Shown here: piece after piece, positions 13,005 to 64,000 of the stretch | Layout: the number at the start of each line of letters is the position of its first letter | Numbering within the stretch: position 1 is the stretch's first letter | Virus record (IMG/VR): IMGVR_UViG_3300025162_000041 | Location: 18,908 to 82,907 of that record | DNA: 64,000 nt | Reading direction: 5' to 3' (one strand) | DNA from: a virus | Made by a program: the position numbers and the translations under genes | The notes under the pieces: generated by a model | What the model was told of the DNA's origin: nothing | Databases searched by the model: none | What the model saw: only the letters and a program-made list of their open reading frames with translations

Positions 13005-13883
13005 GTGATACCTTCTCTTAAACGAATTGTAGAGTCCTATGGAGCCGAGGGTCAGTATTATGACCTTGGTAAGGATTTTTCTGCATTTCGTAGAATGATT
13101 GATGGTGCTGATCAGCAAGTCAAGCAGCAATATGAGAAACAAATTGCGTCTAAACTTGTAGGGAAACGTGTTCGGGCAAATGCTTCGCGGGGGTATAAGC
13201 AGTTTATAAAAAGTTATGAGTTTGATGTTGTCCGAGTCACATTGGATGATTACTATGATAACTTTGTAGTAATAGCCTATGATAGTACGACTCCAAAACC
13301 AAAGGAATATTTTCTTAAGACGGGGTTCAAAATTCAGATTCTCGGACCTGCTACAGGGCAACCTTCTCCGCAAAAGGGAGGAGACCCTCGCTTCGAGAAG
13401 CCCAAACAGGTTGGTCCAATGCCCATTCAACCTGGACAGAATCCTAATGTAGCTCAATCACAGCCTATGGCATTAGCACCAGCGGGAGCAACTCCGAAAG
13501 AGACTCCGATGGAAGAAAATAAAGAGCAAGATGGACTTTATGATGCTTATGGAATGGATGAAATTTCTCAAGACATCAAAAGATGGATGCCAAAGCTGCT
13601 TAAGAAGCCAGAAACTCAACTACGTGAGTTTATTAAAGGGCTTGGATGGAAGAAGAATCTCGATAAAGGAACTACGGTGGCATTATTCGATTTAAGAATT
13701 CCTTCCATTATGGTTAAGCCTAACAATAATGAGCAAACCATTCGGGATATGCTTGCACAAGAGAGTGCGAACCCAAGGCCGGGGGAAAAGGCGGGAACAC
13801 GGTATGAATTGGTTAAATGTGAACCCGACCAAGAAAAAGGCGAATGGACTGTTCGCATAAAGAAAGTAATCTCACAAGTATGA
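13005..13883 (+). CDS. Unknown prohead-region protein
   Basis: 292 residues from a GTG start at 13005, with AAGGAA six bases upstream. N-terminal half about 1-120 (SLKRIVESYGAEGQYYDLGKD), then a Pro/Gln-rich linker (about 125-170) and a C-terminal domain of about 120 residues. The N-terminal LKRIVE followed by S resembles the leader motif seen on other proteins here. Its last bases overlap the protease start (ATGA), so the two are translationally coupled. Function unknown. Confidence 0.7.
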   Translation: MIPSLKRIVESYGAEGQYYDLGKDFSAFRRMIDGADQQVKQQYEKQIASKLVGKRVRANASRGYKQFIKSYEFDVVRVTLDDYYDNFVVIAYDSTTPKPKEYFLKTGFKIQILGPATGQPSPQKGGDPRFEKPKQVGPMPIQPGQNPNVAQSQPMALAPAGATPKETPMEENKEQDGLYDAYGMDEISQDIKRWMPKLLKKPETQLREFIKGLGWKKNLDKGTTVALFDLRIPSIMVKPNNNEQTIRDMLAQESANPRPGEKAGTRYELVKCEPDQEKGEWTVRIKKVISQV

Positions 13884-15619
13884 ATACACAAAAGAAACTC
13901 TTAATGGAATGCATTACGTTTGAAGCAAATCCACGAATGCTTCGAGAGTCAACATTGCATCCTAATCAGCCGTTTACGGTACAGGGGGTTCTGCAACGCA
14001 AAGGCAAAAAAAATCAAAACGGACGTATATATCCCGACGAGATTCTTATTCGTGAAGCCAATAAATATGCTCAGACGTTCATCCAAGACCATCGTGCTAT
14101 GGGGGAATTAGATCATCCAGAATGTTATCGGGTTGGTGCAGAAATATTTACGAATAGTGGATGGAAAGATTTACGAAATGTGGTTGTTGGTGAGTTAATA
14201 CCAACGTTGAATACGGTTACGAATACCATAGAATATAATCCAATTGAGCGAGTTATAAATGAACAATATAACGGTAAAATGGTATCTATTAAAGGAAAAA
14301 ATATAGATATTCTAGTTACTCCAAATCATAGATTTATTCTACAAACTAGATCAGATAGAGAACAACAAGTTATAGAAAAAACTGCCCAAGAAATATTGAA
14401 CATTTCTAAATTAACAAGAAATACACATTTATCCATTCCTATCGTAGCGGAAAATTGGAATGGATATAAGTATGATATCTATAAAATAGATGCTATTAAT
14501 ATTGAGGACATTGCCAATAATCAATCAAAAGATTATAATATTAAACAAACCACGGCACTTAATTTAGATGCCTCAGCATGGTTTTCGTTTCTTGGATTTT
14601 ATTTGGCAGAAGGACATTGTTCGGATAGAACAAATCGGAACGGTTATGAAATATTTATTACGCAAAATAAGGGAGAAATAGCAGATAAGTTTAGAGAAGT
14701 ATTGCATAATTTGAGTTCCGAATTAAAATGGAATGAGTGGGATAAAGGTGATAATGCAATTACGTTTAATACTTCTGATGCCCGTTTATGGACATATCTT
14801 TCCAAATTGGGAACTAAATATACTAAATATATTCCGCAAGATATAAAGAATGCTTCGTCTGAGTTATTGCAAAATTTGTATGATTGGTTTCTTAATGGAG
14901 ATGGTTCAGTGGTCGGAGATTATGAAAGGACATCTATATTTTCTGTATCTAAAAAACTGATGGAAGATTTTTATGATGTTATCCTTAAACTCGGAATGAC
15001 AGGTGTTATTAAAGAACAAATAACAACTGATGATTATATGTTTGCGGGACGATTGATTGAGGCAAAAAATAAATCTCCATTATATCGTTTATGGATTAAA
15101 GAATCAAAAGCAATTCATCTTGATTTCAGGTTTATAAAAATCGAAGAAGTGGATTATGATAGCACTGTTCATTGTGTTACTGTAAAAAATGGAACATTTT
15201 ATTGTCGGGATCATGGATTCCCTTTCTGGTCTGGAAATTCATCGGTTGTCAACCTGAAGAATGTATCCCATAATGTGCTCGAAATGCATTGGAATGGCGA
15301 TGATCTTATGGGAACTATTGAAATTCTTACGACTCCGAATGGCAACATTTTGCGTGAGCTATTTCGCAATGGTATTAAGCTTGGAATTTCAAGTCGTGGA
15401 CTTGGAACACTCAAGAAAATTTCTGAAAGTTCAGCCGTTGTTGGTGATGATTTTGAATTGATTGCGTTTGATTTTGTCTCAAATCCGAGCACTCAAGGAG
15501 CATTTATGTCTCCCGTAGGTCAAATTCCACTTTCCGAGGGTATTGTAAAAGACATGTTTACGGGGAAGTGGGCACGAACCGATGATATAGTAAGAAATAT
15601 CTTGTCCGAATTAAATTGA
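13880..15619 (+). CDS. Prohead protease (gp21-like) with intein
   Basis: 579 codons from ATG 13880, which overlaps the previous stop as ATGA; an upstream in-frame ATG at 13844 lies inside the previous gene and is less likely. Without the 372-residue intein the protease is 207 residues, almost the size of T4 gp21. Family landmarks: GELDHPE with catalytic His79 just before the intein, NLKNVSHNV after it, and GISSRGLG with the catalytic Ser. It would cleave scaffold, capsid protein and internal proteins after (I/L)-x-E during head maturation. The N-terminus itself (KKLLME, RMLRES) contains such motifs, fitting self-cleavage. Confidence 0.92.
   Translation: MNTQKKLLMECITFEANPRMLRESTLHPNQPFTVQGVLQRKGKKNQNGRIYPDEILIREANKYAQTFIQDHRAMGELDHPECYRVGAEIFTNSGWKDLRNVVVGELIPTLNTVTNTIEYNPIERVINEQYNGKMVSIKGKNIDILVTPNHRFILQTRSDREQQVIEKTAQEILNISKLTRNTHLSIPIVAENWNGYKYDIYKIDAINIEDIANNQSKDYNIKQTTALNLDASAWFSFLGFYLAEGHCSDRTNRNGYEIFITQNKGEIADKFREVLHNLSSELKWNEWDKGDNAITFNTSDARLWTYLSKLGTKYTKYIPQDIKNASSELLQNLYDWFLNGDGSVVGDYERTSIFSVSKKLMEDFYDVILKLGMTGVIKEQITTDDYMFAGRLIEAKNKSPLYRLWIKESKAIHLDFRFIKIEEVDYDSTVHCVTVKNGTFYCRDHGFPFWSGNSSVVNLKNVSHNVLEMHWNGDDLMGTIEILTTPNGNILRELFRNGIKLGISSRGLGTLKKISESSAVVGDDFELIAFDFVSNPSTQGAFMSPVGQIPLSEGIVKDMFTGKWARTDDIVRNILSELN
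14123..15238 (+). other. Intein in prohead protease with LAGLIDADG endonuclease
   Basis: 372 residues from Cys82 (CYRVGAEIFTNSG) to WSGN with Ser as +1 residue. LAGLIDADG-type helices: FLGFYLAEGH and LYDWFLNGDG. Block B has VTPNHRFIL; block F reads VHCVTVKNGTF. The penultimate His is replaced by Gly. The insertion lies between catalytic His and catalytic Ser, so unspliced protease should be inactive. Confidence 0.92.
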
Positions 15620-15644
15620 CATTTTGACTTTGTTGCGATATAGT
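15616..15644 (+). promoter_or_regulatory. Sigma70-like promoter for homing endonuclease
   Basis: TTGACA (15616-15621), 17-base spacer, TATAGT (15639-15644). It overlaps the protease stop codon and points at the endonuclease gene starting at 15666. Confidence 0.75.
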
Positions 15645-15665
15645 ATAAGCAATAAAGTCAAAATT

Positions 15666-17366
15666 ATGGATATAGAAAATTTAAAGCAATGGATAGCAAA
15701 TAATTTACAATATTCGCGTGGATTAATTTGTAAAAAGTGTAAGCGAGAATGGTTTGAGAAATATGGATTTATAGATCAGTGGGATCGGATTCATGTTGCT
15801 ACACAATTTCTAGATAATCTTTTGCCGACCTTTCCTCAGAGGGTATGGCACATTGTAAATGACAGTCTAACAGTTAAATGCAACAATCCTTCCTGTCAAA
15901 ATACGCCACAATTTTGGTCATTTAATGTTGGATATCTTCGGACATGTTCTAATTCGTGTGCTCAATATGACCCCAATACTATTAACAAAATACAGGCAAC
16001 TAATCTCAAAAAATATGGGTGCAAATATGGATTGGAGAACAGAGATATTATATTGAAGCGGGAAGTTACTATGGGTAAAAAATATGGAGTAGAGAATATT
16101 TCTCAAGTCGATGGAATATCCGAAAAAAAACAAGAGACTTGTTTAAAGAATTATGGATCGAAATGGTTTTTAGAAAGAAGTGATTTAATTAAAAAATGCA
16201 TTAATAATAAATATGGAGTGGATAATGTACAACAAGTAACGGAAATAGCAGATAAATCTTCCTGTACAAAAATGGATAATTTTTATGAGTTATTATTGGA
16301 ATCGACTCGGTTTGAAGGGAAGGTAACTCCATCTTTTTCGAAAGAAGAATACAATGGAACTTGCAGAAAATATAAATTTATATGTAATGTATGTAAATTG
16401 GAATTTGAGTATGAGTTGCGATGGGACAGGATTCCTCGGTGTCCAGTATGTTATAAAAGTTCATCAGTCTTTGAAAAAGATGTAAGCGAATATGTAAAAT
16501 CAATTTTGCCAACCGCAAGTGTTATAGAGAATACAAAGTCAGTGTTAGCAAACAATTATGAATTGGATATCTATATTCCGTCTAAAAATATTGCTATAGA
16601 ATGTAACGGATTATTTTGGCATGGAGAGGTTGGTGGGAACAAGAATAAGAATTATCATTTGTTAAAAACAATAGAATGTGAATCTAAAGGAATACATTTA
16701 ATTCATATATTTGAAGACGAATGGAACAATAAAAATCTTATTATAAAAGAAAAATTGAAATATATAATTGGAAATATTAAACCCATCTCGGTTTATGCGC
16801 GAAAATGTAAAATTATAAATGTATTTATTTCTGATAAAAAAGAATTTCTAAACCAAAATCATATACAGGGAAATGATACTTCCAAAATACATATAGGATT
16901 GGAATGGGAAAGCAAGTTGGTATCGGTAATGACATTTTCGTCTAAGCGATGTTTTATTGGATATAAGAATAAAACTAAGAACGATGAAGAATTTGAATTG
17001 TGTAGATATACATCATTGAGTGGACATAGTGTAATAGGAGGGGCGTCAAAATTACTATCATATTTTATAAAAACGTATTGTCCCAAGAAAATAATATCAT
17101 ATGCCGATAGAAGATGGACATATAGCAAAGACAATTTATATGAGAAAATAGGATTCGAGAAGGTATCGGACGGGACTCCTAATTATTGGTATTTCGGACG
17201 GGATGGAAATTATAGACGACTTCATAGATTTGGATTTAGAAAGAATGTTCTTTCCAAGAGGTTGGCGATATTTGATTCTAATCTGACAGAATGGGAAAAT
17301 ATGCAATTGAATGGATGGGATAGAATATGGGATTGCGGAAGTTTAAAATACGAAATGGCTGTTTAG
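15666..17366 (+). CDS. Free-standing homing endonuclease, KYG-repeat/EDxHD type
   Basis: 566 residues from ATG 15666; an in-frame TTG at 15624 lies inside the promoter. Domains: N-terminal Cys-rich segment (CKKC, CNNPSC, CSNSC), then about four KYG repeats of roughly 25-30 residues (NLKKYGCKYGLEN, GKKYGVENISQ, NNKYGVDNVQQ), a CxxC zinc pair (CNVCKLEFEYEL...CPVC), a PD-(D/E)xK-like nuclease (YELDIYIPSKNIAIECNG, then WHGE and FEDEW), and a C-terminal GNAT/Mom-like domain (HIQGND, LVSVMTF, SYADRRW, YEKIGFEKVSDG). This matches the EDxHD group of phage homing endonucleases (I-Bth0305I-like). Paralogues are at 20602 and 42169. Confidence 0.82.
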   Translation: MDIENLKQWIANNLQYSRGLICKKCKREWFEKYGFIDQWDRIHVATQFLDNLLPTFPQRVWHIVNDSLTVKCNNPSCQNTPQFWSFNVGYLRTCSNSCAQYDPNTINKIQATNLKKYGCKYGLENRDIILKREVTMGKKYGVENISQVDGISEKKQETCLKNYGSKWFLERSDLIKKCINNKYGVDNVQQVTEIADKSSCTKMDNFYELLLESTRFEGKVTPSFSKEEYNGTCRKYKFICNVCKLEFEYELRWDRIPRCPVCYKSSSVFEKDVSEYVKSILPTASVIENTKSVLANNYELDIYIPSKNIAIECNGLFWHGEVGGNKNKNYHLLKTIECESKGIHLIHIFEDEWNNKNLIIKEKLKYIIGNIKPISVYARKCKIINVFISDKKEFLNQNHIQGNDTSKIHIGLEWESKLVSVMTFSSKRCFIGYKNKTKNDEEFELCRYTSLSGHSVIGGASKLLSYFIKTYCPKKIISYADRRWTYSKDNLYEKIGFEKVSDGTPNYWYFGRDGNYRRLHRFGFRKNVLSKRLAIFDSNLTEWENMQLNGWDRIWDCGSLKYEMAV

Positions 17367-20601: not shown

Positions 20602-22230
20602 CTATGGATTAGTCCATTCATACTTCAAACTTCCACAGTCCCATATTCTATCCCATCCATTCAACTGCATATTTTCCCATTCAGTAAGTATCGGGTCAAA
20701 TGTTTGTAATTTTTTGGAAAGTTCTGTTTTTCTGAATGCAAATCTATGAAATCGTTTTTGATAATTGTGTTTATTTATATACCAATAATTTGGAACTCCA
20801 TCCGATACCTTTTGAAACCCAATTTTTTCATAGAGATTTCCTTTGCTCCATCGTCGGTCCGCATATGATACAATTTTGCGGGGGCTGTATTTTTTGATAA
20901 AATATGATAAGAGTTTTCCAGCTATTCCAACAACATTTTTTGATGTGGCAAATCGTATAAGTTCATATGTGTCATTGAAATGAGATTTTTTATATCCCAT
21001 AATTTTTCTTAATTTTCCAAAAGTCATTACCGAAACTAATTCGGAATTATAATATGCTCCGATATGAATGGATGATTTATCGGAGCCTTGAATATGATAC
21101 ATATTTAGAAATTGACATCCGTCGGGAAATGATATTTCTCGCAATGTACATTTTCTAGCATAAATCGAATTTTCTATAGATATATTGAGAATATGAGATA
21201 ATTTTCTTTTAACTATCTCCTTTTTATTTATCCATTCGTCTTCAAATATTTGAATTAGATAAATCCCTCTATCTTTACATTTTTCCGTTTTATTTAAATG
21301 ATATAATTTCGATTTTCCGCCAGCAATTTCGGAATGATAATAGTTCCCATTTAGTTCTATTGCTATTTTTTCCTTGGGCAAATAAATATCTATCTCAAAT
21401 TTATTATCAAATTCTTTCCTGCAATTAAATCTTATAATTCCATTGTATATCTTTTGTATGAATTCTTTTAATTCATTTTCTATTTGAGAACGAGGCATTG
21501 GATTACATTTATAGCACTGAACACCTATGTAATTATTCTCAAATTCGTTTCCGCATTTTGTACATTTAAACTGATACAATTTCCCTTTGTTGAATCCTAT
21601 GAATTCAGTTTGAGAAAATTGAGGAATAATTGATGTATTTTCAAGAAGTTTATCGTATATTTTTTTACACCAAGTCATAGATGTTTTTCGGGAAATTTCG
21701 GGCAACATCATTGGGTGTATTACTCCGTATTTCTTTACATTATTTTGATGGGTGTTATTTTTTACTGTTTCGGACGATTTACTATATTCCAATCCATATT
21801 TTATCAGATTGGTTTGTTTTATTTTTTCAATGATTGATGGCAGTCGAAAAACATTATCTACGCCGTATTTGTCCAAACATCCTTGTTTAGATCTCGTTTG
21901 TATCTCGGAAGATGACATTGCTTCGATAGTTCCAAATTTCTGAAGACATGTTTTTTGAACCCGCCTTCTTATTTCAGGAGATAATCCAGCGTTGGTTACC
22001 CCATAGGTTTTCATTGTTGAATTTTCCCGTTTTTTTACAATACATTTTTTGCCACAACACGTGTCAATTTCGGACTCGGAATTTCGACGAGCCATGAATA
22101 TTTTCTCCGAGGATTTTTCAAATATAATGCCACAGATGTCACACTTTGCTATAATAATTCGGCTGGAAAATTTCCCTGTGGAATTCGGGTCGATGTTGTA
22201 CTTTCGAATTGTTTCTTCGTGTAAAATCAT
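20602..22230 (-). CDS. Free-standing homing endonuclease, KYG-repeat/EDxHD type
   Basis: 542 residues. Same architecture as the 15666 gene: Cys-rich N-terminus (CDICG, CCGKKC), five KYG repeats (MKTYGVTNAG, LQKFGTIEAM, LDKYGVDNVF, LIKYGLEYSK, VKKYGVIHPM), CxxC pairs (CTKCG...CYKC), nuclease core FEIDIYLPKEKIAIELNG with YYHSE and FEDEW, and the C-terminal GNAT/Mom-like domain (HIQGSD, SYADRRW, YEKIGFQKVSDG). Convergent to the ADP-ribosylglycohydrolase gene. Has its own promoter (22255-22282). Confidence 0.82.
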   Translation of the reverse strand: MILHEETIRKYNIDPNSTGKFSSRIIIAKCDICGIIFEKSSEKIFMARRNSESEIDTCCGKKCIVKKRENSTMKTYGVTNAGLSPEIRRRVQKTCLQKFGTIEAMSSSEIQTRSKQGCLDKYGVDNVFRLPSIIEKIKQTNLIKYGLEYSKSSETVKNNTHQNNVKKYGVIHPMMLPEISRKTSMTWCKKIYDKLLENTSIIPQFSQTEFIGFNKGKLYQFKCTKCGNEFENNYIGVQCYKCNPMPRSQIENELKEFIQKIYNGIIRFNCRKEFDNKFEIDIYLPKEKIAIELNGNYYHSEIAGGKSKLYHLNKTEKCKDRGIYLIQIFEDEWINKKEIVKRKLSHILNISIENSIYARKCTLREISFPDGCQFLNMYHIQGSDKSSIHIGAYYNSELVSVMTFGKLRKIMGYKKSHFNDTYELIRFATSKNVVGIAGKLLSYFIKKYSPRKIVSYADRRWSKGNLYEKIGFQKVSDGVPNYWYINKHNYQKRFHRFAFRKTELSKKLQTFDPILTEWENMQLNGWDRIWDCGSLKYEWTNP

Positions 22231-42129: not shown

Positions 42130-42158
42130 TTGATGTTTTATTGTTTTTGACTTATATT
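42130..42158 (+). promoter_or_regulatory. Sigma70-like promoter for homing endonuclease
   Basis: TTGATG (42130-42135), 17-base spacer, TATATT (42153-42158), then GAAAGG and ATG 42169. Confidence 0.65.
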
Positions 42159-42168
42159 GAAAGGTAAT

Positions 42169-43941
42169 ATGCGAAAACCCAATACGGATGAACTTATTAG
42201 TATTATATATCAGAATAAATGTCATTACAGGTCAATAATCAAATCTAAGTTTCCAGAATTACATCTGTTTATAGAAACTGAATATTATGGGAATTCGTTC
42301 GGGGAAAAGTTATATAGATGGATACACGAAAACTCGGCGGGGGGTGTGTGTAAAGTTTGTCAATCTTCAACCAGGTTCAAAAGTATTTTTGATGGATTCC
42401 AAACATATTGCTCATCGAGGTGTTCCAATGGAGATATTATAGTTAAACAACTCAAAGAAGATTCTTATTTGAAGAATTGGGGGGTTAAAAATCCATCTCA
42501 AGCAGAAAAAATTAAAGGGAAGAAAAAACAAACTTGCGAGAAACACTTTGGAGTTGATTGCAATTTGAAATTGGGTTCGTGTAAATTACAAATCAAAGAA
42601 ACAAATCGACAAAAATATGGAGTTGATTATCCTCTTCAAAATCAAAGTATATTAGAAAAACAACAGGATACCAATCTGCAACGATATGGGAAACGATCTG
42701 TCGGTCAAGTAGAAGAATTTAAAACGAAAGCAATTCAAACAAACCTGAGTAAATTCGGAGTAGAGCATCCGATTCAAAACAAAGAAATACACGCAAAACT
42801 AGAAGAAACAAATCTAAAACGGTTCGGAGTTAGGCATATGGCCCAAAGTGATAAATATAGAATTGAAAGGCGAAGAAGATTTTTTGAAACATTATTGCAT
42901 TCCGATAGGTTAAAATCCAGAGTTACTCCGATGTTTGTCTTAGCGGATTTTATCGACTGTAATACTAAAAATAAGTATGATTTCAAATGCAATACATGTG
43001 CAAATGTGTTTCAAGATCATTTGGACAATGGACGAATTCCAAGGTGTTATAAATGTTATCCGCTGCTTTATCAGTCTTTTGCCGAAAGAGAAATAGCCGA
43101 TTTTATACGCAATTCTATAGCCGATAAAATAGTTGAAAACGATAGGTCTGCGCTTGGAAATTTGGAATTGGATATTTATATTCCGTCCAGAAATTTGGCA
43201 ATAGAATTCAACGGATTATATTGGCACAGTGAATTGGGAGGTAATAAAAATAAAGATTATCATCTCAATAAAACTGTAAGATGTCAATCGAAAGGAATAA
43301 GACTTATTCAGATATTTGAAGATGAATGGTTACAAAAACAAGACATAGTAAAAAAACGACTTGCTCATTTGTTGGAACTGGACATGTCCAGAATATATGC
43401 CAGAAACTGCGTTATTATTCCCATTCCTAACGTTCTTTGTGCCGAGTTCTTAGAGAAAAATCATTTGCAAGGAAAAGATAATTCTACTATAAAATTAGGA
43501 GCATATTATAATAGCGAATTGGTTTCGCTTATGACATTCGGCAAACATAGATTTTCAAAGAATAAAGATGTTTGGGAAATGTATCGTTTTTGTTCGTCTA
43601 AAAATGTGGTTGGAATAGGAGGAAAATTGTTTAAATATTTTGTGAAAAATTATAATCCCAACCAGGTTATTTCCTATGCCGATAGAAGATGGTCGTCGAA
43701 TATTGCGTTTTATGAAAAAATTGGATTTCAATCCGAAGGAATGACTCGGCAAGGTTATTATTATATGGACGACTATCGGAATCGATATTATAGATTTAAC
43801 TTTAGAAAATCAGTATTATCTAAAAAATTAAAAGTATATGATTCTAATTTAACCGAATGGGAGAATATGCAATTAAATGGATACGACCGAATATGGGATT
43901 GCGGAAATTTGAGATATAAATGGACTCCACATAACTTTTAA
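42169..43941 (+). CDS. Free-standing homing endonuclease, KYG-repeat/EDxHD type
   Basis: 590 residues from ATG 42169 with GAAAGG upstream. Same family as 15666 and 20602, with the longest repeat array: six units (LKNWGVKNPSQ, EKHFGVDCNL, RQKYGVDYPLQ, LQRYGKRSVGQ, LSKFGVEHPIQ, LKRFGVRHMAQ). CxxC pairs (CKVC, CNTC, CYKC), nuclease core LELDIYIPSRNLAIEFNG with YWHSE and FEDEW, and the C-terminal GNAT/Mom-like domain (HLQGKD, SYADRRW, YEKIGF). Inserted in opposite orientation between the neck genes; flanked downstream by a solo IS605-like end. Confidence 0.82.
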   Translation: MRKPNTDELISIIYQNKCHYRSIIKSKFPELHLFIETEYYGNSFGEKLYRWIHENSAGGVCKVCQSSTRFKSIFDGFQTYCSSRCSNGDIIVKQLKEDSYLKNWGVKNPSQAEKIKGKKKQTCEKHFGVDCNLKLGSCKLQIKETNRQKYGVDYPLQNQSILEKQQDTNLQRYGKRSVGQVEEFKTKAIQTNLSKFGVEHPIQNKEIHAKLEETNLKRFGVRHMAQSDKYRIERRRRFFETLLHSDRLKSRVTPMFVLADFIDCNTKNKYDFKCNTCANVFQDHLDNGRIPRCYKCYPLLYQSFAEREIADFIRNSIADKIVENDRSALGNLELDIYIPSRNLAIEFNGLYWHSELGGNKNKDYHLNKTVRCQSKGIRLIQIFEDEWLQKQDIVKKRLAHLLELDMSRIYARNCVIIPIPNVLCAEFLEKNHLQGKDNSTIKLGAYYNSELVSLMTFGKHRFSKNKDVWEMYRFCSSKNVVGIGGKLFKYFVKNYNPNQVISYADRRWSSNIAFYEKIGFQSEGMTRQGYYYMDDYRNRYYRFNFRKSVLSKKLKVYDSNLTEWENMQLNGYDRIWDCGNLRYKWTPHNF

Positions 43942-56839: not shown

Positions 56840-59800
56840 ATGCCAGGCCTTACGTATATCGAGAATGAACAACTTTTGCACAGTGGAAGTTTTTTTACTT
56901 CCAGTGGTGGACACATAACTATTACGCCGTATGAGGCACCACTTGGAAGCACTATTACGATTGGAGTAGTGGGTGGATATTCTATTCCATCGGTGTATCA
57001 GGTATCATTGATTGGAAGCCAGAGTATGTATGCTACCCAATCATTATTTGCTACATCTTCAATTTCGGCTAGTTATGCATCAACGGCTTCATATATTTCG
57101 TCCAGTAATATTATTGGTTATGTTACCGCTTTAAGTGCTTCATGGGCTAGTGCATCGATATCATCGAGTTATGCGATGCAAGCATTAAGTTCGTCGTATT
57201 CATCTGCATCTTTGAGTTCTTCATATGCATTAACTGCTTCATATGCTTACACCGCTTCTTTTGCGTTGAATTCCTCCGCCGCATTTTTTAGTACTCAAAC
57301 TCTATTTAGTACTCAATCATTATACACAACCCAATCATTATATGCTACACAGTCATTATATGCCACTCAAAGTACATATGCTACTCAATCGTTGTTTGCG
57401 AGTCAGTCTATTAATGCCTATAGTGCATCATGGGTTTCCGCATCAGTAACGATTAACTCCGCATTAGCAGCAACTCAATCATTATTTGCAACACAATCTC
57501 TGTTTAGTACACAGTCACTGTATGCAAGTCAATCTATCAATGCTTATTCTGCATCGTGGGTAAGTGCTTCTGCATTTATTACAACCGCTCAAACGGCAAG
57601 TTATATATCTTCTTCGGCGATATTTGATAAAACGATTTATAATCATACTGCTTCTAATGCTACCAGTGCTTCATATTCATTAAGTTCCAGTTATGCAATA
57701 AGTGCATCATATGGATTATCTTCTTCTTATAGTTTAAATGCGACGACTGCTTCTTATGTATCATCCAGTAATATTATTGGTTATGTTACCGCTTTAAGTG
57801 CTTCATGGGCATCGGCAAGTATATCAGCATCATTTGCGAATACTTCTTCATATCCTTGGTTTCAGACAGGTGGTAATATAGCTTATGTCGGTGGCAACGT
57901 CGGCATCGGGACGACGAGTCCCTTAACTTTATTGGAAATTCCTGGAAGTACAGCAAATAGTTCGTTGAAAGTCGGTTCATTTGAGGTTCAAGGTTATGCT
58001 GTCAATAACTCTTTGATTGGAGAAAATACTTATTTTGACGGTGTAGTAGCCAGAGCAAGATCCACAGGATATGGAAATTTAATTCAACTCAATTCTGGAG
58101 ATATTCAATTTAGAACAGCCCCTTCTGTTAGCGCTGGTTCTATTCAAACTTTTGCAACTCCGATGATTATTAAAAACGGTGGCAACGTCGGCATTGGTAC
58201 ACCAACTCCCGTTAATAAGTTAGATGTAGCAGGTAATATTTCTTGTTCCGTTATTACCGCTTCATTATTATTAGGAACAGCAACAAATGCATTAACAGCA
58301 TCTAGTGCCGATTATTTTCGCGTTAGAAATGATATAATTATTGACGGTGTATTGATTGCATCTCAATTAAGTTCCAGCAATATTTATATAACTTCCAGTT
58401 ATCTTATTGCGACGGACAATATATTATTATTAAATGCACAAACGCCGCATTTAAGATATGCTGGAATTGAAGTTTACGATTCCGGGTCAACCTTGCAATT
58501 AGCATCATTACTGTGGGATGGAATGAATAACTATTTCTTTTTATCCAGTTCAGATGGTGGGTGGAGTAGAAAAATTGTAATGGGTCCAGTAAATGAAACT
58601 GACCTTACACCGAATTATGTTCCAATAGCCGATAGTTTTACCAGCTTGAAAAATAGCGTCATTTATCAATCTGCTAGTAATGTCGGCATCGGGACGACGG
58701 CACCCAGTCAGAAGCTTGAAGTACTGGGTAATATATCTGCTTCTGGTTATATTATTTCTACCACCGATGGTTCAAAAATAACTGGTTCATTGTTAGGTAC
58801 TGCTTCTAATGCCACGAATGCAAATACTTCTTCTTATCCTTGGTTCCAAACTGGGAGTAATATCGCTTATGTCGGAGGAAATGTCGGCATCGGGACAGCA
58901 AATCCACGGGCAAAATTAGCAATCGAATCATCTACACCGACTGCTGGTGATGCTACAATTCGTTTGCAAACTTCTGCGGGTAATATTACAGTGGGAACTA
59001 TAATTGGTGATATAGAATATTATACTCAAGATGCATCTGTTAATGGAACTGGATTAGTAGCAAGAATGAGGGCTGTGTCTGAGGGGTTATTTATAGGCGC
59101 GGGTGTAAATAAATCGGCATTAAGTTTTTGGACTACTGATGTTACTGCGAATGCGGGAAGTATAATAGAAAGAATGCGAATTAATAGCGCTGGTAAAGTT
59201 GGAATAGGTACAACATCACCAACTAATTCATTAGACGTAGATGGGAATATATCCTGTTCAGTAATAACGGCATCATTATTATTAGGAACAGCAACAAATG
59301 CATTAACCGCAAGTTATGTAAGTAAATCCGTAATGGGGGATGGAGTATATAACATTGTATATCTTAATAGTGCAAGTTATGCATCACTTAATCCACCGTC
59401 GGCATCAACTCTCTATGCGGTAATGGCGGAAGATTTTAGAGTAACAGAAATTGATGATTTAAGAATTACCGAAGATGGATATTCCAGAATTACTCAATTA
59501 GGAAAATTGACATTATATTTGGGATTAAATCCAATAACAACTGATACAGCAAGTTATGCCACAACTTCATCCTATGCAATAAATGGATTTCAATCAATAT
59601 TTGCTACTCAATCAATTTACGCCAATAGTGCGTCGTGGATAAGTGCTTCGGTGTTTATAACTCTTTCCCAAACTGCGTCATATATTTCTTCTTCAGCAAT
59701 ATTTGATAAAACGATATATAATCTAACTTCGTCTTGGACTAATAATGCAATTACATCACTGACTGCTACGCAATCGTTGTTTGCTACACAGAGTATATAT

Positions 59801-61465
59801 GCCGCGAGTGCTTCATGGGTTAGTGCCTCAGTATTTATAACAACTGCACAAACTGCCTCATATATTTCTTCCTCGGCAATATTTGATAATAAAGTATATA
59901 ATCATACTGCATCTTGGACTAATAATGCAATTACTTCATTTACTAGTACTCAGTCATTATTTGCTACACAGAGTATATATGCCGCGAGTGCTTCGTGGGT
60001 AAGTGCATCTGCATTTATAACTACCGCTCAGACAGCATCATATATTTCTTCTTCGGCAATATTTGATAAAACTATATATAATCTAACATCGTCATATACA
60101 TTGACTGCTTCCTATGCACCAGTGGAACCCGCATATAGTGCGAGTGCGGCATCTTTGATTGGAACAAAACAACCACTATTAATTACTGGAAATACTTATA
60201 CAATTACATCATCGTGGGCAAATAGTTCAATATTTAGTATTAGTAATACATCATCTTCTTATGCATCTGCATCTACCAGTGCTTCTTATTCACCAGTAGA
60301 ACCTGCATATTCCGCTTCCGTCTCAATTATTTTTGGCACCAAGCAACCAAATTTGATTACTGGGAATACTTATACAATTACTGCAAGCTGGAGTAATAAT
60401 TCTTTAACCGCTTCTTATATATCTTCCAGTAATATTATTGGTTATGTTACCGCTTTAAGTTCTTCATGGGCTAGTGCATCAATATCATCTAGTTATGGAT
60501 TAAGTGCTTCATATGCAACGACAACAGGAACGGCAAATGCAATTTCATTTGTGCCCGCAACTGCTACTTCTGCATCGTGGGTTAGTGCCTCGGCATTTAT
60601 TACGTTATCACAAACTGCGTCATACATTTCTTCTTCGGCAGTATTTGATAATAAAATATATAATCATACTGCATCATGGGCTATTGTTTCATTAACTTCA
60701 TTGACAAGTACTCAGTCATTATTTGCTACTCAAAGTATTTATGCTACTTCTGCTTCATGGGTTAGTGCCTCGGTATTTATAACTTTAGCTCAAACTGCTT
60801 CGTATATTTCTTCTTCGGCAATATTTGATAATAAAGTATATAATCACACTGCATCGTGGGCAATAAATGCAATAACAGCCAGTTATTTAAGCAGTTCGGT
60901 AATGGGCAATGGGGTATATAACATAGTATATTTAAACAGTGCAAGTTATGCATCACTTAATCCACCATCATCATCAACACTGTATGTAGTGATGGCGGAA
61001 GATTTTAGAGTTACAGAAATTGATGATTTACGACTTACCGAAGATGGTTATTTAAGAATTACTCAATTAGGAAAATTGACATTATATCTTGGATTAAATC
61101 CAATAATAACCGATACAGCAAGTTATGCTACAACTTCATCGTATGCAATAAATGGATTTCAATCAACATATTTTACCGCTGCTGTTGCAAATATTCTATA
61201 CCCAGTAATCGTAACACCAACAGGTTCTTATACAAATGCTTGGTTTGATTATGGCGTAAATAGTGGAAGTAATAATAGATGTGGAACAATATTTGGTTGT
61301 TGGAATGGGAGTAATGTATCTTATGCAGAATATGCTAATGTGGATATTGGCGATACTTCTCAGGTCACAATTAGTATGGATATTAGTGCCTCAAACTTAA
61401 GATTGTTATCAACGGCAACAAATACAAATAATTGGAATATTAAAGTATCACCAAGATATTTATAA
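56840..61465 (+). CDS. Giant Ser/Ala-repeat tail fibre 2
   Basis: 1541 residues. Similar build to fibre 1: arrays of SASWASASISSSYA, TQSLYATQSLYATQS and QTASYISSSAIFDKT units, several VGGNVGIGTTSP/KLDVAGNISCSVIT segments, and a C-terminal domain (YTNAWFDYGVNSG). A block of about 90 residues (GVYNIVYLNSASYASLNPP ... LGKLTLYLGLNPI) occurs twice, near residues 830-920 and 1350-1440 (DNA about 59330-59590 and 60895-61150). Ends 5 bases before the retroelement-type receptor protein, with which it may assemble at the fibre tip. Confidence 0.85.
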   Translation: MPGLTYIENEQLLHSGSFFTSSGGHITITPYEAPLGSTITIGVVGGYSIPSVYQVSLIGSQSMYATQSLFATSSISASYASTASYISSSNIIGYVTALSASWASASISSSYAMQALSSSYSSASLSSSYALTASYAYTASFALNSSAAFFSTQTLFSTQSLYTTQSLYATQSLYATQSTYATQSLFASQSINAYSASWVSASVTINSALAATQSLFATQSLFSTQSLYASQSINAYSASWVSASAFITTAQTASYISSSAIFDKTIYNHTASNATSASYSLSSSYAISASYGLSSSYSLNATTASYVSSSNIIGYVTALSASWASASISASFANTSSYPWFQTGGNIAYVGGNVGIGTTSPLTLLEIPGSTANSSLKVGSFEVQGYAVNNSLIGENTYFDGVVARARSTGYGNLIQLNSGDIQFRTAPSVSAGSIQTFATPMIIKNGGNVGIGTPTPVNKLDVAGNISCSVITASLLLGTATNALTASSADYFRVRNDIIIDGVLIASQLSSSNIYITSSYLIATDNILLLNAQTPHLRYAGIEVYDSGSTLQLASLLWDGMNNYFFLSSSDGGWSRKIVMGPVNETDLTPNYVPIADSFTSLKNSVIYQSASNVGIGTTAPSQKLEVLGNISASGYIISTTDGSKITGSLLGTASNATNANTSSYPWFQTGSNIAYVGGNVGIGTANPRAKLAIESSTPTAGDATIRLQTSAGNITVGTIIGDIEYYTQDASVNGTGLVARMRAVSEGLFIGAGVNKSALSFWTTDVTANAGSIIERMRINSAGKVGIGTTSPTNSLDVDGNISCSVITASLLLGTATNALTASYVSKSVMGDGVYNIVYLNSASYASLNPPSASTLYAVMAEDFRVTEIDDLRITEDGYSRITQLGKLTLYLGLNPITTDTASYATTSSYAINGFQSIFATQSIYANSASWISASVFITLSQTASYISSSAIFDKTIYNLTSSWTNNAITSLTATQSLFATQSIYAASASWVSASVFITTAQTASYISSSAIFDNKVYNHTASWTNNAITSFTSTQSLFATQSIYAASASWVSASAFITTAQTASYISSSAIFDKTIYNLTSSYTLTASYAPVEPAYSASAASLIGTKQPLLITGNTYTITSSWANSSIFSISNTSSSYASASTSASYSPVEPAYSASVSIIFGTKQPNLITGNTYTITASWSNNSLTASYISSSNIIGYVTALSSSWASASISSSYGLSASYATTTGTANAISFVPATATSASWVSASAFITLSQTASYISSSAVFDNKIYNHTASWAIVSLTSLTSTQSLFATQSIYATSASWVSASVFITLAQTASYISSSAIFDNKVYNHTASWAINAITASYLSSSVMGNGVYNIVYLNSASYASLNPPSSSTLYVVMAEDFRVTEIDDLRLTEDGYLRITQLGKLTLYLGLNPIITDTASYATTSSYAINGFQSTYFTAAVANILYPVIVTPTGSYTNAWFDYGVNSGSNNRCGTIFGCWNGSNVSYAEYANVDIGDTSQVTISMDISASNLRLLSTATNTNNWNIKVSPRYL

Positions 61466-61470
61466 GCATC

Positions 61471-62862
61471 ATGTCAACTAACACAAGAATAAGCAAATTG
61501 AACGAAGCTGGACCGATTACAGGAGCGGAATTGATTGAATTAGTGCAAGGAGGTTCATCTGTATATTCCACCGTCAGTAATATTTCTGTCACCGCCAGTG
61601 TATTGGGCACTGGTCCAAATGATTGGTATAATAAAAATGATAGTGAGATACCAGCTTTCGCTACCACTAACTCCCAATCAATGGCTGTTAGTACAGATTT
61701 ATTGATTTATGTAAATAATAAAGCGTATACTTTTACCAGCGGTAGTTCAGTCACTATGCCCGCTCTAATGCTCGCTGGTAATGATTACGGTATCTATGCC
61801 ACCACTTCTAGTAATCTAATCGCTACCTATACCAACACCAGTTCTATCGCTATGGGTGGCTATACACCGCCTTCTGGTTATGATAATACCAATTCCAGAT
61901 TGATAGGTGGCTTCTATTTCGCCCATTCAGGTAGTTCACCGCTCTCAATTCTTGGTAGAGACTGTTCTGGAGTCGGCAGTGCCTCAATCTCTATGAGTAG
62001 TGCCGCCCACGGATTAGTAACTGGTGATTATATAGATGTTATCCTAATGACTGATTATACCTACAATACCATAAATATCCCAATCACCGCAAGCGGAACC
62101 ACCACTATTACTTTTCCTCTTACTCACGGAGCAGAAGCATATACTGCTGATACCGCTGGTAAAATATACAAAATCAATAACACAGGTATAATAAATCAAT
62201 ATAGTATCTGGGACTTAAAGTTTAAGCCAAAATGTCCAGACCCCCGTGGTATGATACTAATAAATGACTCCTTCTGGGTCGATATCTGGATGACTAATGT
62301 ACAGTATCTTACAAAAGGAACTAGTAGAAAAGGCGAAAGAATTGCTGATGGAGAAGGTGGGGCTTCACTTCCGCTAATTTCGACGAAAATGGGAGGCAAT
62401 GGTACATCTGCTTATGGTAATTGTGACTGGTTTACATCAAATGAAGTATTATCTCATTGGGGCAAGAAACTTCTGAGTTATGCAGATTTTTGTGTAGCAG
62501 CGTTTAATGGAACTACAGAGAACGGGTCATATGGCGCTGATAATCAATATACGTGTAGGCCGAATGGGGCGCAGTGGTTGAGCAAGTGGGGGATGGAGCA
62601 ATCTTATGGGGTAATGTATATTTGGGGAGCAGATTTGAATTTTTATCACGGAGCAGATGTAAGTTACGGCTGGAGGAATGTTACTGGAGGCAGAGGTTAT
62701 ATTTACACGACACCTGACGGTATGGTAGCAGGTTTGTACGGTGGCTATTGGTCTGTTGGTTCCATTGCTGGTTCTCGTGCTTCGTATTGGTATAGTTTCG
62801 TTTGGAATAGTAACTACCTTGTTGGGTTGCGTGGCCGCTGTGAACATATTGTTGTTCCGTAG
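61471..62862 (+). CDS. Receptor-binding protein, likely DGR target 1
   Basis: 463 residues. N-terminal adaptor KLNEAGPITGAELIELVQGG is typical of phage fibre tips. The C-terminal 120 residues look like the C-type-lectin/formylglycine-enzyme fold used by diversity-generating retroelement (DGR) targets, ending WSVGSIAGSRASYWYSFVWN and then GLRGRCEHIVVP. The framework residues (G-S-R-A-S, W, R-G-R-C) are those conserved in such variable regions, while intervening residues (Y, S, V, I, L) are at codons that would be AAY in a template. No reverse transcriptase or template repeat is in the window. A second copy follows at 63019. Confidence 0.78.
   Translation: MSTNTRISKLNEAGPITGAELIELVQGGSSVYSTVSNISVTASVLGTGPNDWYNKNDSEIPAFATTNSQSMAVSTDLLIYVNNKAYTFTSGSSVTMPALMLAGNDYGIYATTSSNLIATYTNTSSIAMGGYTPPSGYDNTNSRLIGGFYFAHSGSSPLSILGRDCSGVGSASISMSSAAHGLVTGDYIDVILMTDYTYNTINIPITASGTTTITFPLTHGAEAYTADTAGKIYKINNTGIINQYSIWDLKFKPKCPDPRGMILINDSFWVDIWMTNVQYLTKGTSRKGERIADGEGGASLPLISTKMGGNGTSAYGNCDWFTSNEVLSHWGKKLLSYADFCVAAFNGTTENGSYGADNQYTCRPNGAQWLSKWGMEQSYGVMYIWGADLNFYHGADVSYGWRNVTGGRGYIYTTPDGMVAGLYGGYWSVGSIAGSRASYWYSFVWNSNYLVGLRGRCEHIVVP
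62338..62462 (+). repeat. 125-base exact repeat, copy 1
   Basis: Identical to 63876-64000 (from AGAATTGCTGATGGAGAAGG to the window end), although sequence just upstream differs at many positions. Confidence 0.9.
62738..62862 (+). other. Putative DGR variable region
   Basis: Codes for GGYWSVG...RASYWYSFVWNSNYLVG followed by the invariant RGRCEHI. The GC-rich GTTGCGTGGCCGCTG near its end could serve as the homing-initiation site. Inferred from protein pattern; the template repeat is not in view. Confidence 0.55.
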
Positions 62863-62909
62863 CGGAGCGGAAGCGAAGTGGAGGAGCAACACACTTTAAC
62901 TTTGTATTG

Positions 62910-63005
62910 ATGATGAGAAAAATTGAATTTGGTATATTGATTATGATAGAAAAGAAGCAAGTTCGGTGCATAGAAAATAATATTTGGTATATAAAAAAGA
63001 AATAA
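62910..63005 (+). CDS. Possible 31-residue basic peptide
   Basis: MMRKIEFGILIMIEKKQVR... ending IWYIKKK, between the two DGR-type genes. No ribosome binding site is evident; included with low confidence. Confidence 0.2.
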   Translation: MMRKIEFGILIMIEKKQVRCIENNIWYIKKK

Positions 63006-63018
63006 ATAAAAAAACATA

Positions 63019-64000
63019 TGGCAACAAAAAAGATAAGTGAATTAAGTGTAGCTGGAGCGATAGGTGGTACAGAGATGGTAGAATTAGTACAAGCGGGATT
63101 ATCGGTACGTTCTACTGTCAGCAATGTATCTGCTACGGCCAGTATAGTTGGTGGTATACCGAATACTTTTTTTATAAAGGATAATTTAACGATACCAGCA
63201 TTTGCTACTACCAACTTACAATCAATGGCGGTAAACAGTAATTTATTGATTTATGTTAATAATAAACCATATACTTTTACCAGCGGTAGTACTATTACTA
63301 TGCCTGCAATAATGTTGGCAGGTAATGATTACGGTATCTATGCTACAACAAATAATACTCTAATCGCTACCTATACCAATACTGGCTCTACTCCATTAGC
63401 AGGTTATACTCCACCCGCAGGATATGATAGTACTAATTCAAGATTGGTAGGTGGCTTCTATTTCGCCCATTCAGGTAGTTCACCGCTCTCAATTCTTGGT
63501 AGAACTTGCTCTGGTACAAGTGCTTCAATATCTATGAGTAGCGTATCTCATGGTCTAGTTACAGGAGATTACGTTGATGTAATCCTAATAACTGATTATA
63601 CCTACAATACCACAAATATTCCTGTAACTGCAAGTGGTGCCACTATCACTTTTCCTCTTACTCACGGAGCAGAAGCATATACAGCAGATACCGCTGGTAA
63701 AATATACAAAATCAATAACACGGGTATAATAAATCAATATAGTATCTGGGACTTAAAGTTTAAGCCAAAGTGTCCAGACCCAAGAGGTATGATACTAGTA
63801 AATGACTCCTTCTGGGTCGATATCTGGATGACTGGAACGAATTATTTGACTAATGGCACAAGTAGGAAGGGACAGAGAATTGCTGATGGAGAAGGTGGGG
63901 CTTCACTTCCGCTAATTTCGACGAAAATGGGAGGCAATGGTACATCTGCTTATGGTAATTGTGACTGGTTTACATCAAATGAAGTATTATCTCATTGGGG
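63019..64000 (+). CDS. Receptor-binding protein, likely DGR target 2 (partial)
   Basis: 327 residues to the window edge, open at the right. Same protein type as 61471: adaptor KISELSVAGAIGGTEMVELV, then GFYFAHSGSSPLSILGR, IYKINNTGIINQYSIWDLKF and SLPLISTKMGGNGTSAYGNC, all shared with copy 1. The variable C-terminus is beyond the window. Start ATG 63019 follows an A-rich leader. A duplicated target would let two tips vary independently. Confidence 0.8.
63876..64000 (+). repeat. 125-base exact repeat, copy 2
   Basis: Identical to 62338-62462 and runs to the window end, so the repeat may be longer. Confidence 0.9.

What the first reader, a model, noticed from the sequence alone, without database searches (positions are those of the whole stretch)
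61471..64000. Two tandem receptor proteins with DGR-type variable C-termini
Seen: the 61471 protein ends with the GSRAS...W...RGRCEHI framework characteristic of DGR target proteins, and a second copy begins at 63019. Inference: a diversity-generating retroelement with template repeat and reverse transcriptase probably lies just right of the window, and may diversify both tips.
Basis: partly seen in the sequence, partly recalled or inferred. Interest (0 to 1): 0.72.

Follow-up and report, generated by a model that had tools for sequence, protein, structure and literature searches.

The report
Twin self-mutating receptors of jumbo phage
A very large bacterial virus carries two side-by-side copies of a host-recognition protein whose tips are rewritten by an error-prone copying system known from a small Bordetella virus, and the copies appear to trade their binding domains, so the virus may keep changing which surface it grips.

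Summary
ORF 61471-62862 is a homologue of Mtd, the diversified receptor of Bordetella phage BPP-1 (PDB 1yu2, E=5e-55). A second copy starts at 63018. The window ends where the 82.9-kb viral contig ends, so the second copy is cut at residue 327 and no template repeat (TR), Avd or reverse transcriptase (RT) lies in this contig.

The predicted diversity-generating retroelement (DGR) is supported by relatives. A contig 98% identical outside the variable repeat (VR) starts inside the same gene and continues with Avd, TR and RT. The window VR differs from that TR at 16 of 99 positions, all at adenines (p=1e-11). A related, apparently complete ~362-kb T4-like jumbo phage carries mtd-mtd-avd-TR-RT; both its VRs match the one TR except at adenines, plus one lost codon.

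New here: the duplication predates the split of the two phages (first 40 codons, 15:2 sites), yet the lectin domains were homogenised within each genome (62:1 sites; up to 588 identical bases). Recombination apparently copies the binding domain, VR included, between the twins, and the DGR re-diversifies each. DGRs with paralogous targets are known; I found no report of one in a jumbo phage or of such homogenisation.

The parts
61471..62862 (+). mtd copy 1: Mtd-like receptor protein, 463 aa, with C-terminal C-type-lectin-like domain
   Evidence: ORF; Pfam mtd_2nd 2e-10; phrog_11262 tail 3e-74; PDB 1yu2 Mtd 5e-55
61654..61935 (+). Mtd second domain (aa 62-155)
   Evidence: Pfam PF21916
61939..62166 (+). 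about 76-aa insert (aa 157-232) between Mtd domain 2 and the lectin domain, not aligned to BPP-1 Mtd; a homologous second insert (33% identity) lies inside the lectin domain in L004
   Evidence: alignment gap
62176..62859 (+). C-type-lectin-like (Mtd) domain, aa 236-463
   Evidence: aligned to Mtd residues 157-380
62740..62838 (+). variable repeat (VR): 16 differences from the L006 TR, all at TR adenines, 12 codons changed
   Evidence: (p=1e-11)
62824..62838 (+). invariant 3' end of VR (GGGTTGCGTGGCCGC), identical in TR and VR; IMH-like position
62849..62858 (+). 5' arm of candidate inverted repeat (TTGTTGTTCC) downstream of VR
   Evidence: single-strand folding not significant
62860..62891 (+). 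stop codon and conserved noncoding block; 3' arm GGAGCAACA at 62883-62891; conserved after all five target genes compared, absent after TR
63018..64000 (+). mtd copy 2, cut off by the contig end at residue 327 (VR not present)
   Evidence: mtd_2nd 1e-10
62338..62462 (+). 125-nt tract identical between copy 1 and copy 2 (copy-1 side)
63876..64000 (+). 125-nt identical tract, copy-2 side; the contig ends inside it

Best explanation
The two genes are tandem Mtd-type receptor-binding proteins of a T4-like jumbo phage and are the twin targets of one BPP-1-type diversity-generating retroelement whose avd-TR-RT part lies just beyond the end of this contig. The RT, with Avd, copies the TR RNA with errors opposite adenines; the cDNA replaces the VR at the 3' end of either mtd gene, so about a dozen residues at the tip of the lectin domain change while the framework (GG-W, AGSR, W, GLRGRC) stays. 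The twins keep different N-terminal parts, but their lectin domains are homogenised by recombination between the copies, which also carries the VR from one to the other; the DGR then diversifies each VR again. Shown by sequence: homology to Mtd, adenine-only TR/VR differences, presence of Avd and RT in close relatives, twin targets of one TR in G001, homogenised lectin domains. Inferred: presence of the cassette in this very genome, present activity, role in host binding, gene conversion as the recombination mechanism.
For: Mtd homology. Window VR vs L006 TR: 16/16 differences at adenines; L006 own VR 16/17; L004 18/18; L003 VR2 14/14; L003 VR1 10/10 plus one lost codon. bAvd PF22296 and RVT_1 in all four relatives tested; RT 44% identical to BPP-1 Brt, its best match among named phages. 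Collinearity: this contig matches G001 34.8-116 kb up to the mtd pair, and L006 matches G001 from avd onward. Nine of the 12 changed codons fall on positions that differ among four Mtd variants of known structure. Homogenisation: codons 215-327 62:1 sites for within-genome pairing, codons 1-40 15:2 for orthologous pairing; a 588-nt identical tract in L003; L003 VR1 and VR2 agree at 23 of 26 adenine sites, p=3e-7 against independent mutagenesis.
Against: TR, Avd and RT are not in this contig. L006 may be a sister strain rather than the continuation of this genome. L023, from another metagenome, has the same VR as L003 copy 2, so diversification is not seen between those two contigs. Identical tracts in a metagenome assembly can be overstated by collapsed repeats. 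Two AlphaFold models had no usable confidence, so the fold rests on sequence homology.
Confidence: 0.9

Rival explanations
1. The window genome carries Mtd-like twins whose DGR has been lost or is inactive; the VR is a frozen relic of earlier diversification.
For: No TR, Avd or RT in the 82.9-kb contig; identical VR in L023 and L003 copy 2.
Against: The contig stops before the place where all relatives with that stretch have avd-TR-RT; the frame is intact; the VR has no non-adenine difference from the L006 TR, which a long-dead VR would have gathered; G001 and this contig are collinear up to that point.
Confidence: 0.07
2. An ordinary phage tail lectin without any DGR; the adenine pattern is coincidence or drift.
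For: C-type lectin folds exist without DGRs (general knowledge).
Against: Zero non-adenine differences in four of five VR/TR comparisons and one in the fifth, p down to 1e-12; RT and Avd next to the TR.
Confidence: 0.01
3. The high identity of the twin lectin domains is an assembly artefact or a very recent partial duplication rather than repeated gene conversion. (This concerns only the homogenisation part, not the DGR itself.)
For: Metagenome assemblies; both this contig and L006 end inside tracts of about 125 identical bases, as expected at an unresolved repeat.
Against: In the window the identical tracts alternate with 47-80% identical stretches inside one contig, which collapse cannot make; the first 40 codons support orthology across the two phages (15:2) whereas the lectin domain supports within-genome pairing (62:1), in two lineages.
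Confidence: 0.2

Closest known systems
Bordetella phage BPP-1 DGR (Mtd / Avd / TR / Brt)
   Same: Same target family (mtd_2nd plus Mtd lectin domain), bAvd, nearest named RT (44%), order target-avd-TR-RT, adenine mutagenesis, largely the same variable positions.
   Different: About 362-kb T4-like phage instead of a 42-kb phage; two tandem targets; an additional ~76-aa segment in the target; no BPP-1-like strong short hairpin identified, only a 9-10-bp inverted repeat with a long loop.
DGRs with several paralogous targets (DiGReF survey, PMC3521204; PMC6642488)
   Same: One TR and RT serve several paralogous target genes that arose by duplication.
   Different: Target pairs in that survey are listed at about 41-72% identity in the rows read; here the lectin domains are identical or nearly so while the N-terminal parts diverged, indicating concerted evolution.
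Two-target phage DGRs with tentaclins (nd4, nd12; PMC10743442)
   Same: A phage DGR with one TR and two target genes.
   Different: Tentaclin and target2 share no sequence similarity, with the VR at opposite ends; here both are Mtd paralogues with a C-terminal VR.
Large phages related by capsid protein (Microcystis phage Mel-JY01, Flavobacterium phage immuto, uncultured phage LR756508)
   Same: Major capsid protein 50-53% identical.
   Different: No Mtd-like protein found in those records; a survey of 224 jumbo phages reports no FGS-type lectin domain (PMC7824862).

Membership tests
Diversity-generating retroelement (DGR) | TR and VR near-identical, differences confined to TR adenines | tested here: met
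   Window VR vs L006 TR 16/16; same in L003, L004, L006. The TR is in relatives, not in this contig.
Diversity-generating retroelement (DGR) | DGR-type reverse transcriptase next to the TR | tested here: met
   In relatives G001, G002, G004 and L024; BPP-1 Brt is the best named match. Absent from the own contig, which ends before that place.
Diversity-generating retroelement (DGR) | Accessory protein Avd (or equivalent) | tested here: met
   PF22296 bAvd E about 1e-28 in relatives; phrog_3206 Avd protein of DGR.
Diversity-generating retroelement (DGR) | Target with C-type lectin fold presenting the VR | tested here: met
   By sequence to PDB 1yu2; predicted models were of too low confidence.
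Diversity-generating retroelement (DGR) | IMH at the 3' end of VR, IMH* at TR, stem-loop 3' of IMH | tested here: inconclusive
   Shared 3' end GGGTTGCGTGGCCGC that then diverges, conserved noncoding block and inverted repeat only at the VR; folding energy not above shuffles.
Diversity-generating retroelement (DGR) | Observed variation in a population or RT-dependent retrohoming | not testable with these tools
   No reads available; the window and L006 VRs differ at 18 sites, 17 of them TR adenines, but they may be different copies.
Mtd family | Mtd second domain plus C-terminal Mtd lectin domain | tested here: met
   PF21916 over cut-off; 41-42% identity over 227 aa to BPP-1/BMP-1 Mtd.
Jumbo phage (>200 kb), T4-like | Genome over 200 kb with T4-like capsid genes | tested here: met
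   For relative G001: 368,758 bp with 7,102-bp identical ends, UvsX-like recombinase and DNA polymerase. For the window: T4-like major head protein and S77 prohead protease. The window's own genome size is inferred from collinearity.

The most novel reading that the evidence does not exclude
A jumbo phage that pairs a DGR with recombination between twin receptors: two Mtd proteins with different anchoring parts share one lectin body kept identical by gene conversion, so a successful hypermutated tip found in one receptor can be copied into the other and then diversified again.
Probability: 0.55. Interest if true: 0.65.

Novelty: new variant of a known kind. Interest (0 to 1): 0.52.

Why it matters
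A survey of 224 jumbo phages reports no lectins of the DGR type (PMC7824862), and three other papers on huge phages do not mention DGRs in their main text; here a BPP-1-like cassette sits in a T4-like phage of about 362 kb. The twin targets give a natural experiment: the lectin bodies were reset to identity, so the changes gathered since then, only at TR-adenine sites, record DGR action on each copy. Whether phages use recombination to share a good receptor tip between paralogues becomes directly testable with reads.

Tried and rejected
Looked for RT, Avd and TR in the own contig with Pfam RVT_1, tblastn and direct TR scanning: none. AlphaFold on two alignments: confidence too low to use, so no fold search was run. 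Rfam: no family. The inverted repeat 3' of VR was tested as a hairpin and is not significant by energy. The T7 records matching Mtd turned out to be engineered T7-Mtd chimaeras. The initial ungapped reading of L003 VR1 (7 non-adenine differences) was an artefact of a one-codon deletion; gapped, it has none.

Full report
WHAT IS THERE. The window is bases 18908-82907 of an 82,907-bp viral contig; its right end is the end of the contig. ORF 61471-62862 encodes 463 aa; a second ORF starts at 63018 and runs off the end after 327 codons. The protein matches the Mtd second domain (Pfam PF21916, E=2e-10), a tail-protein family (phrog_11262, E=3e-74) and all solved Mtd variants of Bordetella phage BPP-1 and its derivatives (best E=5e-55, residues 236-462 on Mtd 157-380). 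Between the two Mtd-like parts lies an extra segment of about 76 residues that BPP-1 Mtd lacks.

IS THERE A DGR? Not in the contig itself: no RVT_1 domain, no Avd, no TR. Four relatives were found in IMG/VR by protein search, two more by TR pattern and RT. Those that reach past the gene have the order mtd - avd - TR - RT (L003, L004, L006, L023), and L024 begins with avd - TR - RT. The small proteins are bAvd (PF22296, E about 1e-28) and the next gene is RVT_1; the RT is nearest to BPP-1 Brt among named phages (44%).

ADENINE TEST. Window VR 62740-62838 against the TR of L006 (732-830): 16 differences in 99 bases, all 16 at TR adenines (27 available), p=1e-11. Other comparisons: L006 VR 16/17, L004 18/18, L003 copy 2 14/14, L003 copy 1 10/10 plus one lost AAT codon. 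The changes in the window alter 12 codons, all changing the amino acid; aligned to Mtd they sit at residues 344, 346, 347, 350, 355, 357, 359, 360, 361, 367, 368 and 369, of which nine (344, 346, 347, 350, 357, 359, 360, 368, 369) differ among the four Mtd variants M1, I1, P3c and P1 shown.

IS L006 THE CONTINUATION? Gene order of this contig matches the 369-kb contig G001 from 34.8 kb to the mtd pair at 113-116 kb, and L006 matches G001 from avd at 116.5 kb onward. The window contig stops inside a 125-base tract that is identical in both copies, and L006 starts inside a 123-base tract identical to copy 1. This looks like an assembly break at a repeat (inference). L006 differs from copy 1 by 4 of 190 bases upstream of the VR, as copy 2 of the same genome or a sister strain would.

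THE VIRUS. G001 has 7,102 identical bases at its two ends, so it is probably complete at about 361.7 kb (inference). The major capsid protein in the window is T4-like (phrog_138) and 53% identical to those of Microcystis phage Mel-JY01 and Flavobacterium phage immuto. The window has a T4-type S77 prohead protease; G001 has a UvsX-like recombinase and a DNA polymerase. The host is unknown.

THE TWINS EVOLVE IN CONCERT. In G001/L003 the two genes are about 57-90% identical over the first ~700 bases and then identical for 588 bases up to the VR, and again from within the VR to about 50 bases past the stop. In the window the pattern is patchy: tracts of 35-125 identical bases alternate with 47-80% identical stretches. 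Informative sites among the four genes (two per phage): codons 1-40 support pairing copy 1 with copy 1 and copy 2 with copy 2 (15:2, plus 2 for the cross pairing); codons 215-327 support pairing within each genome (62:1). Third codon positions in the lectin part are only about 45-58% identical between the phages for most blocks but 100% within G001, so base-level constraint is not the reason. The duplication is therefore older than the split of the two phages, and the lectin part was homogenised afterwards in each. Within the homogenised block of G001 the two genes differ only in the VR and only at TR-adenine sites (plus the lost codon); 23 of 26 adenine sites agree, where about 10 are expected for independent mutagenesis (p=3e-7). 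The simplest reading is that recombination copied lectin domain and VR from one gene to the other, and the DGR has since changed one or both.

A CIS ELEMENT. About 30 noncoding bases after the stop codon (CGGAGCGGAAGCGAAGTGG...AGGA(A/G)CAACA) are conserved after every target gene compared and absent after the TR; their end forms an inverted repeat with the last codons. This is the place where BPP-1 has its stem-loop (PMC12875486), but folding energies are not significant, so the role is only suggested.

HOW COMMON IS IT? Among about 80 RT-related viral loci searched for TR/VR pairs, most have one VR. Two VRs occur in G001 (L028), L090, L096, L099, L100 and L102. L099 (244-kb contig) also has two adjacent paralogous targets, but without a homogenised domain.

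KNOWN OR NEW? Several paralogous targets per DGR are known (PMC3521204; PMC6642488), and two-target phage DGRs are known with unrelated targets (PMC10743442). A survey of 224 jumbo phages found no FGS-type lectin domain (PMC7824862); a 2026 review of jumbo phages, a large 2026 survey and the 2020 huge-phage paper do not mention retroelements or reverse transcriptase in their main text. Among the DGR-RT-like matches listed from 158 deposited phage records, the only one over 200 kb is a marginal hit (Listeria phage LPJP1, 23% identity, E=2e-6), though not all 158 were listed. This DGR may already be counted, unremarked, in the large catalogue of PMC8144416, which was built from metagenomes (inference). 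I therefore file it as a BPP-1-type DGR in an unusual setting, with the concerted evolution of its twin targets as the new element.

WHAT IS NOT SHOWN. The cassette in this very genome, present activity, the role in host binding and the recombination mechanism are inferred. L023 from another metagenome has the same copy-2 VR as G001, so turnover is not seen between those two.

Noticed in passing
window 13844-15616 (+): Prohead protease (Peptidase_S77) interrupted by a probable intein with a LAGLIDADG domain.
   Followed up: partly
window 15624-17363 (+), 20602-22230 (-), 42157-43938 (+): Three large ORFs; the two scanned are homing-endonuclease-like (DUF7487, phrog_3339), the third was linked by similarity to the same G001 protein as the first.
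   Followed up: partly
L004:1347-1622: The Mtd of L004 carries a second insert inside the lectin domain that is 33% identical to the insert present in all members before the lectin domain, as if this small segment were mobile.
   Followed up: partly
L099:9466-12878: A 244-kb viral contig has a DGR RT with two adjacent paralogous targets downstream of the RT; another large phage-like contig with a DGR.
   Followed up: partly
L105:1-7102 and the end of L123 (G001): The 368,758-bp relative has 7,102 identical bases at both ends, so it is probably a complete genome of about 361.7 kb.
   Followed up: partly
window 56840-61465: 1541-aa protein just upstream, rich in SASWASASISASYA-type repeats, with a 180-bp tandem repeat at 59627-60093; similar repeat-rich proteins surround the DGR in G001.
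   Followed up: no
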